NCBI GenBank assembly: GCA_028710565.1
Contig: JAQTTV010000017.1
Location: 1-64,000, forward strand
Origin: Gallionella sp.
GTDB taxonomy: Bacteria; Pseudomonadota; Gammaproteobacteria; Burkholderiales; Gallionellaceae
Reading direction: 5' to 3'
DNA: 64,000 bases
Below are positions 25,639 to 33,724 of the stretch, piece after piece (the stretch's first letter is position 1; each line of letters begins with the position of its first letter). Under the pieces are notes generated by a model. The model did not search any database. It was not told where the DNA came from and saw nothing but the letters and a program-made list of their open reading frames with translations. The position numbers and the translations under genes are program-made.

Positions 25639-26667
25639 ATGCTCAGTAGTATTGCAATTGCAGTCGTTATTTTAGGCGGAATATTGATCCTTTTTGGATT
25701 GATGGGCATCAGATTGAAATTTTTTGGACAGCCCTTGCAGCAATGGTTGGGTGAGTTTGCCCGAGGGATCGGTTTGGTCGTGGGTATTTGTCTCATTACT
25801 TTGGGCATTTGGCTCTATCCCAACCACGAATCAATCAGAGGTATGGCAAAAGACGAAGTGGCTAAAGCAGAGTTGCAAGCCGCGCCGCTTCCCCAACAAA
25901 TATCGACCAAACCAGGCTCCGTGTTTCGGGACTGTCCAAGTTGCCCAGAAATGATCGTGCTACCCGCAGGTAAGTTTTTAATGGGCGCACCCGAAGCAGA
26001 AACTGCACACGAACAAATGGAGATGCCCCAGCATAGTGTCACCCTTAATTATGCTTTAGCCGTGGCGAGAACAGAGATCTCTTTTGCCGAATGGGATGTC
26101 TGTTCAACAGCAGGAGTCTGTCGCAAAAACGTTGAAAGCAATTGGCCACGTGGGCAACAACCTGCCATCAACATTAACTGGAATGATGCGAATACTTACA
26201 TAGAGTGGCTCTCCAAGACGACAGGTCAATCCTATCGTTTGCTCACAGAGTCCGAATGGGAATATGCCGCTCGTGGCAATACTCAAACCGCCTACTCTTG
26301 GGGAAATCAAATCGGCAATAATCAAGCCAATTGCTCCCTATGCGGTTCACAGTCCACACAGTCCAAAGTTATTGGGCCACAACTGGTCGGCTCTTATACC
26401 CCAAATTTATTCGGTTTATTTGATATGCACGGCAATGTGCAAGAATGGGTACAGGATTGCTGGCATGAAAACTACCAAGGTGCGCCACAAGATGGAAGCG
26501 CGTGGATCACCGCTTGCAGCGAAGGTCGGCGCATCGTGCGTGGCGGCGCATGGGACAGTAGCGCAACCGCATTACGTAGCGCAGCGCGTGACCGAAAAAC
26601 ATGGGATCACCTCAGTCCGAGCATCGGTTTCCGTGTGGCACGCGTCATCACTCTAGCCAATCTATAG
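25639..26667 (+). CDS. Membrane-anchored formylglycine-generating-enzyme/sulfatase-modifying-factor domain protein
   Basis: TM N-terminus; MIVLPAGKFLMGAP, YRLLTESEWEYAARGNTQTAYSWG, LFDMHGNVQEWVQDCW, VRGGAW...IGFRVAR. Confidence 0.9.
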   Translation: MLSSIAIAVVILGGILILFGLMGIRLKFFGQPLQQWLGEFARGIGLVVGICLITLGIWLYPNHESIRGMAKDEVAKAELQAAPLPQQISTKPGSVFRDCPSCPEMIVLPAGKFLMGAPEAETAHEQMEMPQHSVTLNYALAVARTEISFAEWDVCSTAGVCRKNVESNWPRGQQPAININWNDANTYIEWLSKTTGQSYRLLTESEWEYAARGNTQTAYSWGNQIGNNQANCSLCGSQSTQSKVIGPQLVGSYTPNLFGLFDMHGNVQEWVQDCWHENYQGAPQDGSAWITACSEGRRIVRGGAWDSSATALRSAARDRKTWDHLSPSIGFRVARVITLANL

Positions 26668-27672: not shown

Positions 27673-28198
27673 GGCTCTATGTGAATCATAGTGGGTCATC
27701 GTGGCACAAGTGAGCAATCTCCCGCCCCTTCAAGGGGAGGGCTGGGGTGGGGATGGGGGTATAACCGCCTCGTTCTGTAAAGCGATCAAGATAGCCTCGA
27801 CCACCGCATCCGTTTCTTGCAAAACCTGGTTGTTCCAGAACCGCAACACCCGAAATCCAGCTTCCTGTAAACGCCAGTCTCGTGCTTGATCTCGCTGGTT
27901 TCCTAAGGGCTGCCCGCCATTGACCTCAACAATCAAGCTCTTTTCCAAACAGACAAAGACCAACACGTAATCCAAGTACGGATGTTGGCGGCGGAATTTA
28001 CAACCATCTAGTTGCCGACTGCGTAGTCGTTGCCATAACCGCATTTCCGCATCGGTCATGTGGCAGCGCATGTTCACTGAAGCTGCCTGCCGATGATCGT
28101 GTGTTTGTTTGCGCCTTCATCTCTACCCCATCCCCACCCCAACCCTCCCCTTGAAGGGGCGGGTGACGCGTTTCACCCACTGTAAATCACATAGAACC
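27673..28198. mobile_element. TIR element carrying a DUF559 nuclease gene
   Basis: Ends GGCTCTATGTGAATCATAGTGGGT and (reverse complement) GGTTCTATGTGATTTACAGTGGGT; subterminal CTCCCCTTGAAGGGG repeats; two decayed relatives in the window. Confidence 0.75.
27730..28077 (-). CDS. DUF559 (Vsr-like endonuclease fold) protein
   Basis: MTDAEMRLWQRLRSRQLDGCKFRRQHPYLDYVLVFVCLEKSLIVEVNGGQ...RDQARDWRLQEAGFRVLRFWNNQVL. Confidence 0.92.
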   Translation of the reverse strand: MNMRCHMTDAEMRLWQRLRSRQLDGCKFRRQHPYLDYVLVFVCLEKSLIVEVNGGQPLGNQRDQARDWRLQEAGFRVLRFWNNQVLQETDAVVEAILIALQNEAVIPPSPPQPSP

Positions 28199-29675: not shown

Positions 29676-32447
29676 ATGACGCAATCTTCCCCAACTCCGA
29701 TTGAAGCACTCAAGGCATTGCTGGATGCAGGTTTACTCCAGCAAGTTGCTTACGATGCCGCCGTGTCTGCCATGCAAGCCCAACTCACGGGAAACGGGGC
29801 GATTGCCCAAGGAGAAAACAATGTTGCACTTGGGGCTGGCAGTGTTTATATCAACGGCAACTTTAACTTCGACGGGTTGCTCAAGCAAGGCACGCAAGCC
29901 AATGCCAGCAAGGAAGATATGCAGCGCGCTTACTTGGCGTGTATTTTGCAGTCGGCGGATGAGTTGCCGCTGTTTGCCAACGATAAAAAACTGAAACTTT
30001 CCTCTGTTTACACCGCGCTGCTAACCCAACGTAGCGAATCGAATGTCATCGAAAAATCCCCCGAACAGCAGGCCAAACTCCTCTCAGCCTTGGATGTATT
30101 GAATGCCGAAAAAAAGCTGGTACTGCTAGGCGGGCCTGGCAGTGGCAAAAGCACATTTGTCAATTTTGTCGCGCTGTCGATGGCGGGAGAGTTGCTGGGC
30201 GACAATACGCTCAATCTCGCCAGCCTCACCGCGCCGCTACCCAATGAGCAAGACAGCCGTCCACAACACTGGGATCACGGTGGGCTGCTACCCGTTTTGA
30301 TTACCTTGCGCGACTTTGCCAGTCAGTTGCCCCCAGCGGGATGCCCCGTGAATGCAGAAACAGTTTGCACCCATCTGCAAAAGAAACTCCAAGCGTATGC
30401 GCTGGCGGATTTTTATCCCCATTTGCGTGACGAAATGTTGCAAGGGCGCGCCATGATTTTGTTTGACGGACTGGACGAAGTGCCCGATGCAGATGAGCGG
30501 CGGTTGCAAATCAAACAAGCGGTGCAAGAATTTGCCAAAACCTTTTTCCGCAGCCGTTTTCTGGTAACCAGCCGCACCTACGCCTATCAACGGCAAGACT
30601 GGAAACTGGATGGTTTTGCAGCGGTTGACCTGTTGCCCTTCACGCTGGGGCAAATTCATCGCTTTGTCGAAGTGTGGTATCAGCAGATGGTGCATCTGCA
30701 CAAGCTCACCGCCGTCAGTGCAGCAGATCGCGCCGAAGTATTGCTTCGCACGGTAGAACGCAACGAACGTCTGTTCAAATTGGCGGAACGACCGTTATTG
30801 CTGACTTTAATCGCCCAAATCCAAACTGACAAAGGCGGCGACCTGCCCGAAAAACCTGAGCAACTTTACGACAAAGCCGTTGAAATGCTGCTGAATCAAT
30901 GGGAAGGGATGAAGAAAGTCATCGGCGAAAAAGGTGAAGAAATCATCCAGCTCAGTCTTGCCGAGTATCTCGATGTCGGGAAAGACAAAATCCGAAAACA
31001 ACTCAATCGCTTGGCATTTGAGGCACATCGTGACCAACCCGACCTCAGGGACACTGCCAGCATTCGGCAAGCGGACTTGATTTGCGCCCTGATGAACGCC
31101 AGTCCAACCCCTGAAAAAGTGAAGCCCAAACTTTTGGAGCGGTATTTGAGTGAGCGCGCAGGCATTTTGGCGGCACACGGCAACAAAATGTACCAATTCC
31201 CGCACCGCTCTTTTCAAGAATATCTCGCCGCCTGCCATCTGACCGATGACGATTTTCCTGAGCAATTAGTGGAATTATTCCTCAACGATACCAATCGTTG
31301 GCGCGAAGTAGTGTTGCTGGCAGGGGCAAAAGCCGCACGCGGTGCAGCGGTCAATGCTTGGATGTTAAGCGAAACCTTGTGCCCAGAAATTCCCACGGGG
31401 CAGGATGATGAAAAAGATCATTTCGGCGCGCTGTTAGCGGGACGCGTGCTGGTGGAGAGTGCAGATTTAAGCCACGTTGCGCGCCGCGACCTGCCCAAAC
31501 TGGATCGCATCCGCACTTGGCAACTTGCTATTTTGCGCCAAAACGTCTTGCCCGCCCTAGATCGTGCACTGGCAGGACGAACCCTCGCCACATTGGGCGA
31601 TACGCGGCAAGAAGTGATGACACTGGACGAGATGCAATTTTGCTATGTCCCCGCAGGCAGCTTTACCATGGGCGAAGGCGAGGAAGCGCATTCTGTTACA
31701 TTGCAACAACCCTATTGGATGGCGCGCTTTCCTGTGACGCTCGCACAATGGCGTGAGTATTTGCAATGCAGCGGCAACGCGCCTGACGATGATGACAGCC
31801 TGAAAGGTCATGGCAATGTGCCTGTTGCCAATGTCACATGGCATGACGCACGGCGTTTTTGCGATTATCTCACCCAAGCATGGCAAGCTGTTTTACCCAA
31901 GGGCTATATCGTCACTTTGCCGTCCGAAGCGGAATGGGAGCAAGCCGCACGCGGCGGCGAATGGATACCAGATGCCCCGCGTTATGCCTCAGTCGCGCAA
32001 ATGGGAAAATGCGTGGAAACACCTTTGCACGTCAATGCTTCGCCGCAACGTGGTTATCCTTGGGGCGATGACTTTGACGCAGACAAAGCCAATGTCAATA
32101 CACCTTTCGGTGAGGCCAGCGTGGTCGGTTGCTATCCGTTAGGCGCAAGTCCTTACGGCTGCGAAGAAATGAGCGGCAATGTATGGGAATGGACGCGTAG
32201 CTTATGGGGTAGAGATAGGCGAAAACCAGAATATAGCTATCCATATCAACCTGACGATGGGCGTGAAAATCTGGATACGGACGATACGGGGGGGCGGGTG
32301 CTTAAGGTGCTGCGCGGCGGATCTTGGGGCTGGCCCAGTGACTATGCACGCTGTGCCTTGCGCTTCTGGGTTGATCCTAACTTTCGTATTGTCGGTATCG
32401 GCTTTCGGGTCGTGTTGCGTTTTTCCCCTGTTAACTCTGGACTCTGA
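29676..32447 (+). CDS. NACHT-STAND NTPase with N-terminal 'GAIAQG' tag and C-terminal FGE-sulfatase/C-type-lectin domain
   Basis: ATG at 29676; GNGAIAQGENNVALGAGSVYINGNFN tag; VLLGGPGSGKSTFVNFVALSM Walker A; MILFDGLDEVPD; FLVTSRTYAYQ; FGE domain MQFCYVPAGSFTMGEG...LRGGSWGW...IGFRVV. Confidence 0.92.
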   Translation: MTQSSPTPIEALKALLDAGLLQQVAYDAAVSAMQAQLTGNGAIAQGENNVALGAGSVYINGNFNFDGLLKQGTQANASKEDMQRAYLACILQSADELPLFANDKKLKLSSVYTALLTQRSESNVIEKSPEQQAKLLSALDVLNAEKKLVLLGGPGSGKSTFVNFVALSMAGELLGDNTLNLASLTAPLPNEQDSRPQHWDHGGLLPVLITLRDFASQLPPAGCPVNAETVCTHLQKKLQAYALADFYPHLRDEMLQGRAMILFDGLDEVPDADERRLQIKQAVQEFAKTFFRSRFLVTSRTYAYQRQDWKLDGFAAVDLLPFTLGQIHRFVEVWYQQMVHLHKLTAVSAADRAEVLLRTVERNERLFKLAERPLLLTLIAQIQTDKGGDLPEKPEQLYDKAVEMLLNQWEGMKKVIGEKGEEIIQLSLAEYLDVGKDKIRKQLNRLAFEAHRDQPDLRDTASIRQADLICALMNASPTPEKVKPKLLERYLSERAGILAAHGNKMYQFPHRSFQEYLAACHLTDDDFPEQLVELFLNDTNRWREVVLLAGAKAARGAAVNAWMLSETLCPEIPTGQDDEKDHFGALLAGRVLVESADLSHVARRDLPKLDRIRTWQLAILRQNVLPALDRALAGRTLATLGDTRQEVMTLDEMQFCYVPAGSFTMGEGEEAHSVTLQQPYWMARFPVTLAQWREYLQCSGNAPDDDDSLKGHGNVPVANVTWHDARRFCDYLTQAWQAVLPKGYIVTLPSEAEWEQAARGGEWIPDAPRYASVAQMGKCVETPLHVNASPQRGYPWGDDFDADKANVNTPFGEASVVGCYPLGASPYGCEEMSGNVWEWTRSLWGRDRRKPEYSYPYQPDDGRENLDTDDTGGRVLKVLRGGSWGWPSDYARCALRFWVDPNFRIVGIGFRVVLRFSPVNSGL
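32308..32425 (+). other. Candidate diversity-generating-retroelement variable-repeat region
   Basis: LRGGSWGWPSDYARCALRFWVDPNFRIVGIGFRVV: CLec VR-like layout; varying positions F,V,N,F,I,V,G are all NNY codons (TTC GTT AAC TTT ATT GTC GGT). Confidence 0.45.
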
Positions 32448-32578
32448 TAACTCTGGAGGGAGTGCGGGGGAGAGCGTAGTGTGGATAAGCAATAGCGCAT
32501 CCACATTTTCCCTGTTTATTCAGGTGGATGCGATTCGCTCACCTACCCTGCTCACGCTAAAAATATAAAACCTGACTG

Positions 32579-32671
32579 AGGGTACGAATATATTCGTACT
32601 TTTTGGGGGAATCAGGTATTTACCCCTTGTTTTTCGCCCTGTCGGGCGATGTATGAATCAATTCATACCCA
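32579..32671. repeat. Second copy of the GGGTACGAAT palindromic repeat
   Basis: gggtacgaatatattcgtact...tttttcgccctgtcgggcgatgtatgaatcaattcatacccac. Confidence 0.75.
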
Positions 32672-32685
32672 CGAGGGGCAAACCG

Positions 32686-33150
32686 CTAACCCAACGTTTC
32701 TTTGAGTTTTTCCAACACATATTCTGTCGCGGGTTTGGCAATGCCGCCGAGTATGGGCGAAGCAAACATACTCACGACCACACCCACGGCAGCGGGCACT
32801 AATGCCACAAAACCCTCGATCATTTTTGCCATCACTTTGTCTTCGGCTTTATCGCCCTTGGCAACTTCCGCCTTGAGAGCTTCAACGTGTTGCACCGCAG
32901 CGGCTTGTTTCTCGGCGGGGGCTAGTTTAATTTCGGTCAACAAAGGGGAAAACAGCAATGCTAATTGTTCGGCTGAAATGCCGTTGGTTTGCGTGCCAGT
33001 GTTGATATTGCCGCTATTGTTGCCGCCAACATGAACGGCTCCCGCACCGAGTGCTTGTGCCCCGTGACCTTGTGCGATTGCGCCGCTTCCGTTGACCGTG
33101 GCACTGTATGACGTGCCGCCTTGTGACGTTGCATTTTCGTTGTTTGGCAT
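32686..33150 (-). CDS. Small 'GAIAQG'-tagged protein with C-terminal hydrophobic segment
   Basis: Start taken at MPNNENATSQGG (33150); VNGSGAIAQGHGAQALGAGAVHVGGNNSGNINTGTQ; hydrophobic FVALVPAAVGVVVSMFASPILGGIA. Confidence 0.75.
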   Translation of the reverse strand: MPNNENATSQGGTSYSATVNGSGAIAQGHGAQALGAGAVHVGGNNSGNINTGTQTNGISAEQLALLFSPLLTEIKLAPAEKQAAAVQHVEALKAEVAKGDKAEDKVMAKMIEGFVALVPAAVGVVVSMFASPILGGIAKPATEYVLEKLKETLG

Positions 33151-33315
33151 GGTGATTCCCCTTATTGGTGATACAAACCGCGTGGCAGGATTGCCACAGT
33201 ACGCGCCTTGATAAGGTGGACAGTCCGCCATCCCCTTGTTGGGCAGGGAATTATAAACGGCTTTGATTTTGGAGGAGAGGGAGATGCGCAGCGCATCCAT
33301 GATTTTTGACTATTC

Positions 33316-33551
33316 TTGCGGCGTTCGAGGCTATCTGGATCGCTTTACAGAACAGGGCGGTTATACCCCAGCCGAACCCACCCCCATCCTAATTGCCCCC
33401 TCGCTTCGCTCTCCCCCTCTGAAGGGGAAGGGACTATCACACTCTCCCCTTCAAGGGGAGAGCTGGAGAGGGGATGGGGTGATTCCGCCCTTGAAGAGGA
33501 GGGAGATTGTTCACTTGTGCCACGATGACCCACTATGATTCACATAGAGCC
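33316..33551. mobile_element. 5'-truncated relative of the DUF559 TIR element
   Basis: Contains nuclease 3' end (gttcgaggctatctggatcgctttacagaac) and terminal ...cacttgtgccacgatgacccactatgattcacatagagcc; flanked by perfect 16-bp direct repeat TGATTTTTGACTATTC (33300-33315, 33552-33567). Confidence 0.75.
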
Positions 33552-33590: not shown

Positions 33591-33714
33591 ACCGACTACC
33601 GACTACCGACTACCGACTACCGACTACCGACTACCGACTACCGACTAAGAACTACCGACTAAGAACTAACGACTAAGAACTAACGACTAAGAACTAACGA
33701 CTAAGAACTAACAA
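33591..33714. repeat. Heptamer tandem array (CCGACTA, then AGAACTA/ACGACTA)
   Basis: Direct reading of ccgactaccgacta... and aagaactaacgactaagaactaacgact... Confidence 0.95.
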
Positions 33715-33724
33715 CCAGACGCAT

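What the first reader, a model, noticed from the sequence alone, without database searches (positions are those of the whole stretch)
29676..33150. Convergent pair: NACHT-STAND sensor and small hydrophobic protein sharing the same N-terminal 'GAIAQG' tag
Seen directly: the NACHT protein carries GNGAIAQGENNVALGAGSVYINGNFN..GLLKQGTQ and the convergently encoded small protein (32686-33150, minus) carries GSGAIAQGHGAQALGAGAVHVGGNNSGNINTGTQ. The shared frame is G-x-GAIAQG-x4-ALGAG-x-V-x3-GN. Glycine-rich repeats of this type resemble beta-roll/left-handed helix segments such as YadA-head repeats. The small partner then has an amphipathic stretch and a long hydrophobic segment (FVALVPAAVGVVVSMFASPILGGIA), as expected for a membrane-acting effector. 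Inference: the tag is a homotypic docking module that pairs a STAND sensor (C-terminal FGE/lectin domain as recognition surface) with a pore-forming effector in a two-gene conflict or immune system.
Basis: partly seen in the sequence, partly recalled or inferred. Interest (0 to 1): 0.85.

Follow-up and report, generated by a model that had tools for sequence, protein, structure and literature searches.

The report
Tagged NACHT sensor and partner pair
Two neighbouring bacterial genes, an immune-receptor-like sensor and a small helical protein, share a short glycine-rich tag; relatives show them to be the stripped-down remains of a larger self-diversifying, probably antiviral, system in which the same tag links variable sensors to a TIR-like toxin domain.

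Summary
The NACHT-FGE protein (29676-32447 +) and the convergent 154-aa protein (32686-33150 -) share a ~38-aa tag; the match scores 95 against a maximum of 74 in 60,000 shuffles, and the two are the only full-length tags in the genome. The pairing recurs. In Gallionella STC_38 a 65% identical small protein adjoins a different tagged NACHT-FGE paralogue in the same argH-ugd slot. In a distant gammaproteobacterium (L052) the same parts sit in one 9-kb locus: NACHT-FGE type 1, an intact diversity-generating retroelement (TR, Avd, RT), NACHT-FGE type 2, and a tagged TIR/DUF4062 protein ending in the window protein's C-terminal domain. The window keeps type 1 plus the effector tail, STC_38 type 2 plus the tail; this explains 'convergent' here and 'tandem' there. 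The window's FGE end carries a fossil adenine-targeted mutation pattern, but no RT or TR was found in its genome. Reading: a retroelement-less descendant of a diversified STAND conflict system, with a YadA-head-like tag as sensor-effector adaptor. Tag binding and membrane action are inferred. Closest known: BASS/BELL and EAD8/DGR systems. New variant of a known kind.

The parts
29676..32447 (+). NACHT-FGE STAND protein, 923 aa ('type 1' sensor)
   Evidence: ORF; Pfam NACHT and FGE-sulfatase; 60% identical over its length to L052 NACHT type 1
29778..29897 (+). Tag in the NACHT protein (AQLTGNGAIAQGENNVALGAGSVYINGNFNFDGLLKQGTQ)
   Evidence: Tag profile A2 E=1.2e-19 (this row is in the profile); significance against shuffles
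30084..30677 (+). NACHT NTPase domain with Walker A and B
   Evidence: Pfam NACHT and related P-loop models, about residues 137-334
31641..32414 (+). C-terminal FGE-sulfatase (C-type-lectin-like) domain, putative ligand-binding surface
   Evidence: Pfam E=5e-36; weak match to the Treponema DGR variable protein TvpA, PDB 2y3c, E=0.0017
32307..32423 (+). Fossil DGR variable region (VLRGGSWGWPSDYARCALRFWVDPNFRIVGIGFRVVLRF)
   Evidence: Differences from the STC_38 VR at 19/27 template-adenine positions versus 14/90 others, p=1.6e-7; no TR or RT found in the genome
32448..32685 (.). 238-bp gap between the convergent genes; in L052 the corresponding interval holds TR, Avd, RT and NACHT type 2
   Evidence: Comparison with L052
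32686..33150 (-). Small tagged protein, 154 aa: tag plus helical/hydrophobic C-terminal domain; predicted effector or adaptor
   Evidence: ORF; 65% identical to the STC_38 homologue; 60% identical in the aligned part to the tail of the L052 TIR-tag protein; dN/dS 0.31
32989..33102 (-). Tag in the small protein (ATVNGSGAIAQGHGAQALGAGAVHVGGNNSGNINTGTQ)
   Evidence: Tag profile A2 E=6.9e-20 (this row is in the profile)
32689..32838 (-). C-terminal helices including the hydrophobic stretch VALVPAAVGVVVSMFASPI (mean hydropathy 2.12)
   Evidence: Hydropathy; AF2 helices with block pLDDT about 57-80
33151..33262 (-). Leader of the small gene (possible -10 TATAAT, RBS AAGGGG), strongly conserved with STC_38
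   Evidence: Alignments

Best explanation
A reduced, retroelement-less descendant of a DGR-diversified STAND conflict (probably anti-invader) system. Ancestral parts, seen in L052: two NACHT-FGE sensors whose FGE ends were rewritten by adenine-targeted mutagenic retrohoming, and an effector made of a TIR/DUF4062 domain, the tag and a helical tail. The window keeps sensor type 1 and a TIR-less effector (tag plus helical tail). Proposed working: an invader molecule binds the FGE surface; the NACHT domain, on NTP exchange, oligomerises; the clustered tags, each like two rungs of a YadA-head beta-roll, stack with the tags of the small protein and gather it, so that its helical, partly hydrophobic C-terminus becomes active, most likely at the membrane, and the infected cell stops or dies. 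Shown: the shared tag, its recurrence, the domain architectures, the DGR in the relative, the fossil VR signature. Inferred: ligand binding, oligomerisation, tag-tag contact, membrane action, any antiphage role.
For: Tag homology and recurrence in two Gallionella and two other gammaproteobacterial genomes. L052 holds N1(+)-TR-Avd-RT-N2(-)-effector(-) with Pfam bAvd E=5e-19, RVT_1 E=6e-12, TIR_2 E=1.5e-5; its two VRs differ from TR at 15/27 and 16/27 adenines but 0/90 and 1/90 other bases. Window = N1 plus effector tail in the same relative orientation as L052; STC_38 = effector followed by N2 on one strand, again as in L052. L053 fuses a TIR_2-matching domain, tag, NACHT and FGE in one ORF: a Rosetta-stone link of tag, effector and sensor. 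Window and STC_38 VRs, from paralogues only 33% identical, agree at 76/90 non-adenine positions and differ at 19/27 adenine positions. 7/14-residue period, YadA-head partial hits, beta strands in the AF2 tag. dN/dS 0.31.
Against: No interaction, toxicity or defence data. The AF2 tag has pLDDT below 50 and the NACHT model is unusable. The TIR domain, the only recognised effector activity of the system, is missing from both Gallionella loci. The hydrophobic segment is less hydrophobic in STC_38. Only about ten tag instances are known, so co-variation of partner tags could not be tested. The tagged NACHT in L054 stands beside a patatin without a visible tag. The reduction-from-L052-like-ancestor scenario rests on one complete locus; gain of parts in the L052 lineage is not excluded.
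Confidence: 0.62

Rival explanations
1. The tag is a true amyloid/prion-like signalling motif (a family outside BASS1-10): the activated NACHT oligomer is a seed that converts the tag of the small BELL-like protein into a growing beta-solenoid fibre, switching on its membrane domain.
For: Same genetic logic as BASS/BELL: short motif at the NLR N-terminus and in an adjacent small helical protein with a hydrophobic helix, sometimes with TIR instead (PMC7889193). Periodic Gly/Asn-rich motif of about two rungs.
Against: In BASS the motif is C-terminal on the effector; here it is N-terminal or central. Amyloid formation not testable here. The BASS profiles were not available.
Confidence: 0.27
2. 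The small protein is not a killer but a regulator or adaptor (a decoy that caps the NACHT tag, or a bridge to another effector), left after loss of the TIR domain, comparable to HET-s versus HET-S.
For: It matches exactly the TIR-less part of the L052 effector; its last third is the least constrained (dN/dS 0.46 against 0.15 for the middle) and less hydrophobic in STC_38.
Against: Overall purifying selection, its own leader and RBS, and retention in two strains with different NACHT partners; no alternative effector seen beside either locus.
Confidence: 0.25
3. A decaying remnant without present function: the retroelement and the TIR domain are gone and the rest is drifting.
For: No RT or TR found in the genome; rare, patchy presence (2 of 159 family genomes).
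Against: Both ORFs intact, Walker motifs intact, dN/dS 0.31 over the small gene.
Confidence: 0.12
4. The shared tag is only convergent low-complexity glycine-rich sequence.
For: YadA-type heads, Gly/Ala-rich repeats, give partial hits.
Against: Shuffle test, specific residues (GxGAIAQG...INTGTQ) conserved across loci, only two full-length tags in the genome and they are neighbours.
Confidence: 0.03

Closest known systems
DGR-diversified STAND/FGE conflict systems (Thiohalocapsa PB-PSB1 DGR 3 and 6, RT clade 5D; PMC10907252)
   Same: NACHT or nSTAND plus C-terminal FGE/CLec targets, often two per DGR; in DGR 6 an adaptor (EAD8) is shared with a neighbouring effector; L052 has this layout
   Different: Window and STC_38 lack RT, TR and Avd beside the sensor; the shared adaptor is a glycine-rich beta-type tag, not EAD8; the effector is TIR/DUF4062 or its TIR-less tail, not trypsin
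BASS/BELL bacterial amyloid signalosomes (PMC7889193, PMC8086366)
   Same: Adjacent NLR and small helical-hydrophobic protein share a 20-40-residue motif; TIR effectors also occur with such motifs
   Different: Motif is N-terminal or central on the effector; looks like 14-residue YadA-head rungs; amyloid nature untested; assignment to BASS1-10 not testable here
YadA/Hep_Hag trimeric autotransporter heads
   Same: 14-residue GxGA[IV]A.G rungs; remote profile hits
   Different: Two rungs only, in non-adhesin NACHT and TIR proteins; full-length profile specific to the conflict loci
Swarozyc DUF4062 TIR-like NADase (PMC13174449)
   Same: The effector of L052 begins with a DUF4062/TIR_2-matching domain
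   Different: Domain absent from the window; trigger there is a phage portal bound by the protein's own auxiliary domain, not a STAND sensor
Avs / bNACHT antiphage NLR-like proteins
   Same: STAND NTPase with a C-terminal sensor region
   Different: No fused N-terminal effector; effector function outsourced to a tagged partner; no PADLOC NACHT-type match
PADLOC candidate PDC-M14B
   Same: [quoted passage not shown] STC_38 0.0014)
   Different: 261-aa model with a different N-terminal part; the rest of PDC-M14 could not be inspected

Membership tests
STAND (NACHT) NTPase | NACHT domain with Walker A and B | tested here: met
   Pfam NACHT 26.2 bits (cut-off 26.7); orthologue L052 N1 32.3 bits, over the cut-off; GGPGSGKST and LFDGLDE read directly
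DGR-diversified STAND conflict system | NACHT plus C-terminal FGE/CLec target with VR-like end | tested here: met
DGR-diversified STAND conflict system | RT, Avd and TR present | tested here: not met
   No RVT_1 match and no second VR-like copy in a 99.99%-complete genome; present in L052. The window is therefore filed as a derivative, not a member
DGR-diversified STAND conflict system | Substitutions concentrated at template adenines | tested here: met
   Window versus STC_38 19/27 against 14/90, p=1.6e-7, using the L052 TR to define adenines; independent divergence at exposed residues could mimic this in part
BASS/BELL amyloid signalosome | Short motif shared by the NLR N-terminus and an adjacent gene's product | tested here: met
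BASS/BELL amyloid signalosome | Motif at the C-terminus of the effector | tested here: not met
   Tag at residues 17-54 of 154
BASS/BELL amyloid signalosome | Effector with BELL-like helical bundle and hydrophobic helix | tested here: inconclusive
   AF2 all-helical C-terminus and hydrophobic stretch, no PDB match; BELL profile not available
BASS/BELL amyloid signalosome | Amyloid formation and seeding | not testable with these tools
   Needs experiment
EAD / Death-like adaptor (Kaur et al., PMC8195603) | Alpha-helical adaptor domain | tested here: inconclusive
   AF2 gives short beta strands in the tag, pLDDT below 50; no Pfam match
YadA-head / Hep_Hag repeat | 14-residue repeat, two short strands per coil | tested here: inconclusive
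   Period 7 (6/2000 shuffles) and 14 (83/2000); profile hits to heads only partial; Pfam Hep_Hag not hit
Swarozyc (DUF4062) | DUF4062 TIR-like domain | tested here: not met
   Absent from the window protein; present in L052 at DUF4062 6.8e-4 and TIR_2 1.5e-5, both under the Pfam cut-offs
Pore-forming effector | Membrane insertion or permeabilisation | not testable with these tools
   One hydrophobic stretch only

The most novel reading that the evidence does not exclude
A previously undescribed class of signalling module: a two-rung YadA-head-type beta-roll that works as an interchangeable plug between retroelement-diversified STAND sensors and their effectors (TIR/DUF4062, or a minimal membrane-acting helical tail), polymerising by rung stacking; Gallionella would have kept a 'frozen' sensor from a once self-diversifying immune receptor.
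Probability: 0.3. Interest if true: 0.75.

Novelty: new variant of a known kind. Interest (0 to 1): 0.6.

Why it matters
It supplies a compact, testable model of how a bacterial STAND receptor with a retroelement-diversified antigen-binding end could pass its signal to a separate effector: two sensor paralogues, one effector family and one 38-residue connector, with a natural one-ORF fusion (L053) and natural reductions (Gallionella). For many STAND targets in such DGR systems the N-terminal extensions were described as uncharacterised (PMC10907252); this tag is a candidate answer for some of them. It also places a TIR-like domain of the recently described DUF4062 NADase family in a retroelement-diversified STAND locus, and suggests that a sensor can survive loss of its diversifier.

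Tried and rejected
Own-genome DGR (no RT, no TR): rejected for the window. DGRs of other Gallionellaceae as the lost diversifier: related RTs occur in 32 of 159 genomes, but in the six neighbourhoods examined none has the tag; two have short FGE targets with other VR ends. Tag or small protein on plasmids, in phages, in viral contigs: no match. Tag profile in order and phylum samples: outside the own genome only partial hits; those that could be identified are autotransporter heads. PDC-M14B as identity: weak domain-level match only; one marginal genome hit (L051/L055) not clearly related. Plasmid NACHT-FGE proteins of Thiodictyon, Chlorohelix and Herpetosiphon: 26-30% identical, no GAIAQG-type tag found. 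Gene conversion between the two tags in one locus: silent sites do not show it. Fold search of the small protein: no significant match. AF2 of the NACHT protein: pLDDT 43.5, unusable. Structured leader RNA: z -1.5 and no Rfam match to it.
Full report
Observation. The two ORFs and the shared motif are real and correctly placed. The NACHT-FGE protein (29676-32447 +) has intact Walker motifs and a C-terminal FGE-sulfatase domain; the small protein (32686-33150 -) has no Pfam match. Aligning the two proteins gives a local score of 95; 60,000 composition-preserving shuffles of either or both tag regions reach at most 74. Searched against its own genome (3.27 Mb, 99.99% complete), the small protein finds only itself and the NACHT tag, and the tag profile finds only the same two full-length tags plus one 14-residue partial hit. 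A single tag pair in one genome, with the two genes next to each other, is strong evidence of a functional link.

Recurrence in the family. Among 159 family genomes only one other has the small protein, 65-66% identical. It is Gallionella sp. STC_38 (L005). There too it adjoins a tagged NACHT-FGE gene in the same slot, between argH and ugd (window neighbours identified). That NACHT protein is not the orthologue of the window's: the two are only 33% identical, and it lies in tandem with the small gene instead of convergent.

The complete locus. A profile of the two small proteins, searched through 339 genomes of the class, found two further carriers in other families. The contig from G1085 (L052) explains both Gallionella arrangements. 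It reads: NACHT-FGE type 1 (+, 60% identical to the window's over its length), a template repeat, Avd (-), a reverse transcriptase (+), NACHT-FGE type 2 (-, about 60% identical to STC_38's), and a 345-aa effector (-). The effector is a TIR_2/DUF4062-matching domain (both matches just under Pfam's cut-offs), the tag and a C-terminal domain homologous to the window's small protein. All three, both NACHTs and the effector, carry the tag. The window equals type 1 plus the TIR-less effector in the same convergent relation; STC_38 equals effector then type 2 on one strand, again as in L052. The type 2 gene of L052 is broken in frame (552 + 313 aa ORFs), by mutation or assembly error. Whether Gallionella lost parts or the L052 lineage gained them rests on this single complete locus; loss is favoured by the VR evidence below.

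Retroelement signature. In L052 the two variable regions differ from the template at 15 and 16 of 27 adenines and at 0 and 1 of 90 other positions, with Pfam bAvd and RVT_1 matches: a textbook diversity-generating retroelement with the two sensors as targets. The window's genome has no detectable RT and no second copy of the VR. Its VR still agrees with STC_38's at 76 of 90 non-adenine positions, although the proteins are distant paralogues, and differs at 19 of 27 adenine positions (p=1.6e-7); the agreement is better than with its own orthologue in L052 (66 of 90). I read this as the trace of a retroelement that once wrote both sensors in a Gallionella ancestor. Caveat: the 'adenine' positions are defined by the L052 template, and independent divergence of exposed residues could produce part of the pattern. 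RTs related to L052's occur in 32 of 159 family genomes, but in the six neighbourhoods examined none has the tag.

The tag. Nine instances align, with the core GxGAIAQG, then AxG, then VxVxG, then GxINTGTQ. They show a 7-residue period (6 of 2000 shuffles) and a weaker 14-residue one (83 of 2000), as in YadA-type heads; in the order sample the remote partial hits that could be identified are autotransporter heads, and the best PDB match, not significant, is a Hep_Hag protein (E=0.31). AlphaFold2 draws short strands there at pLDDT below 50. In 280 class genomes the nine-row profile finds tags in four genomes including the window's: window (2), L052 (3), G1109 (2) and G986 (1, partial). Seven of these eight are NACHT proteins or tagged partners beside them; rows used to build the profile match it by construction, so only the G986 hit is independent in this search, while L052 and G1109 were first found with the two-row Gallionella profile. 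G1109 contributes a protein fusing a TIR_2-matching domain, tag, NACHT and FGE (L053) and a tagged NACHT beside a patatin phospholipase (L054). In G986 (L083) a tag opens a protein of unknown kind next to an ORF with a weak AAA-lid match.

The small protein. Its C-terminal two thirds are predicted helical (block pLDDT about 57-83), with one strongly hydrophobic stretch in the window and L052 but not at that place in STC_38; no PDB fold match. dN/dS between the two Gallionella copies is 0.31 overall, 0.15 in the middle and 0.46 in the last third. PADLOC's candidate family PDC-M14B weakly matches the C-terminal region. So the protein is under constraint, but 'pore former' is a guess; a scaffold, localiser or regulator left after loss of the TIR domain fits nearly as well.

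Mechanism. Most likely: the FGE end senses an invader molecule, NACHT oligomerises, tags cluster and recruit the tagged partner, and the partner's output (TIR-like activity in L052; membrane or scaffold action of the helical tail in Gallionella) stops the cell. The sequence homologies, architectures, recurrence and DGR signatures are shown; every step of the chain of events is inferred from STAND, DGR and TIR biology. DUF4062 was recently reported as a TIR-like NADase in the antiphage system Swarozyc (PMC13174449), which gives the L052 effector a plausible chemistry; its catalytic residue was not checked here.

Comparison. Closest in logic are the BASS/BELL amyloid signalosomes (PMC7889193) and the EAD8-linked DGR 6 system of Thiohalocapsa (PMC10907252). 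The locus differs from the first in motif position and apparent motif type, from the second in adaptor and effector, and from both in lacking the retroelement at the window.

Verdict. Observation confirmed; interpretation partly supported; new variant of a known kind. Interest 0.6.

Noticed in passing
window 27673-27736 / 33488-33551 and 27756-27808 / 33317-33369: Two pairs of inverted repeats (64 nt at 95%, 53 nt at 91%) flank the block ugd + NACHT + small gene; the left copies lie in or next to a DUF559 gene (27730-28077 -), so the right side is probably a DUF559 remnant. They could mark a mobile cassette or allow inversion.
   Followed up: partly
window 33595-33720: Array of a 14-nt unit ACTACCGACTACCG (itself two 7-nt units) ending just beside argH.
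   Followed up: no
window 32980-33262 versus L005 5890-6175: Leader and first ~58 codons of the small gene are much more alike between the two strains than the rest: identical codons among same-residue positions 39/48 against 22/47, p=6e-4. Recent recombination or a nucleotide-level constraint; unexplained.
   Followed up: partly
L052 9481-10518, 7813-9471; L053: A second glycine motif (GGGAYVGGSVDAGGDFIGRD and variants) follows the tag in the type 2 NACHT and TIR proteins but is absent from both Gallionella small proteins.
   Followed up: no
L083 1537-2355 +: Tag at the start of an unclassified protein (no Pfam match) next to an ORF with a weak AAA-lid match and a vWA-looking stretch: possible use of the tag outside STAND systems.
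   Followed up: partly
L054 1-3563: Tagged NACHT protein divergent from a patatin-like phospholipase that matches PADLOC effector models (E=8e-46) but shows no tag.
   Followed up: partly
L074, L075: Other Gallionellaceae carry RT-linked FGE variable-region pairs (asparagine-rich template-like copy plus diversified copy), i.e. probable DGRs with other, untagged targets.
   Followed up: partly
window 25639-26667 +: Another FGE-sulfatase protein with an N-terminal hydrophobic segment, 3 kb from the NACHT gene; no tag.
   Followed up: no
L057 8486: Chlorohelix plasmid: asparagine-rich, template-repeat-like copy (VLRGGSFNNNEANASCAYRNNNNPNNDNNNIGFR) just downstream of a NACHT-FGE gene: probable DGR.
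   Followed up: no
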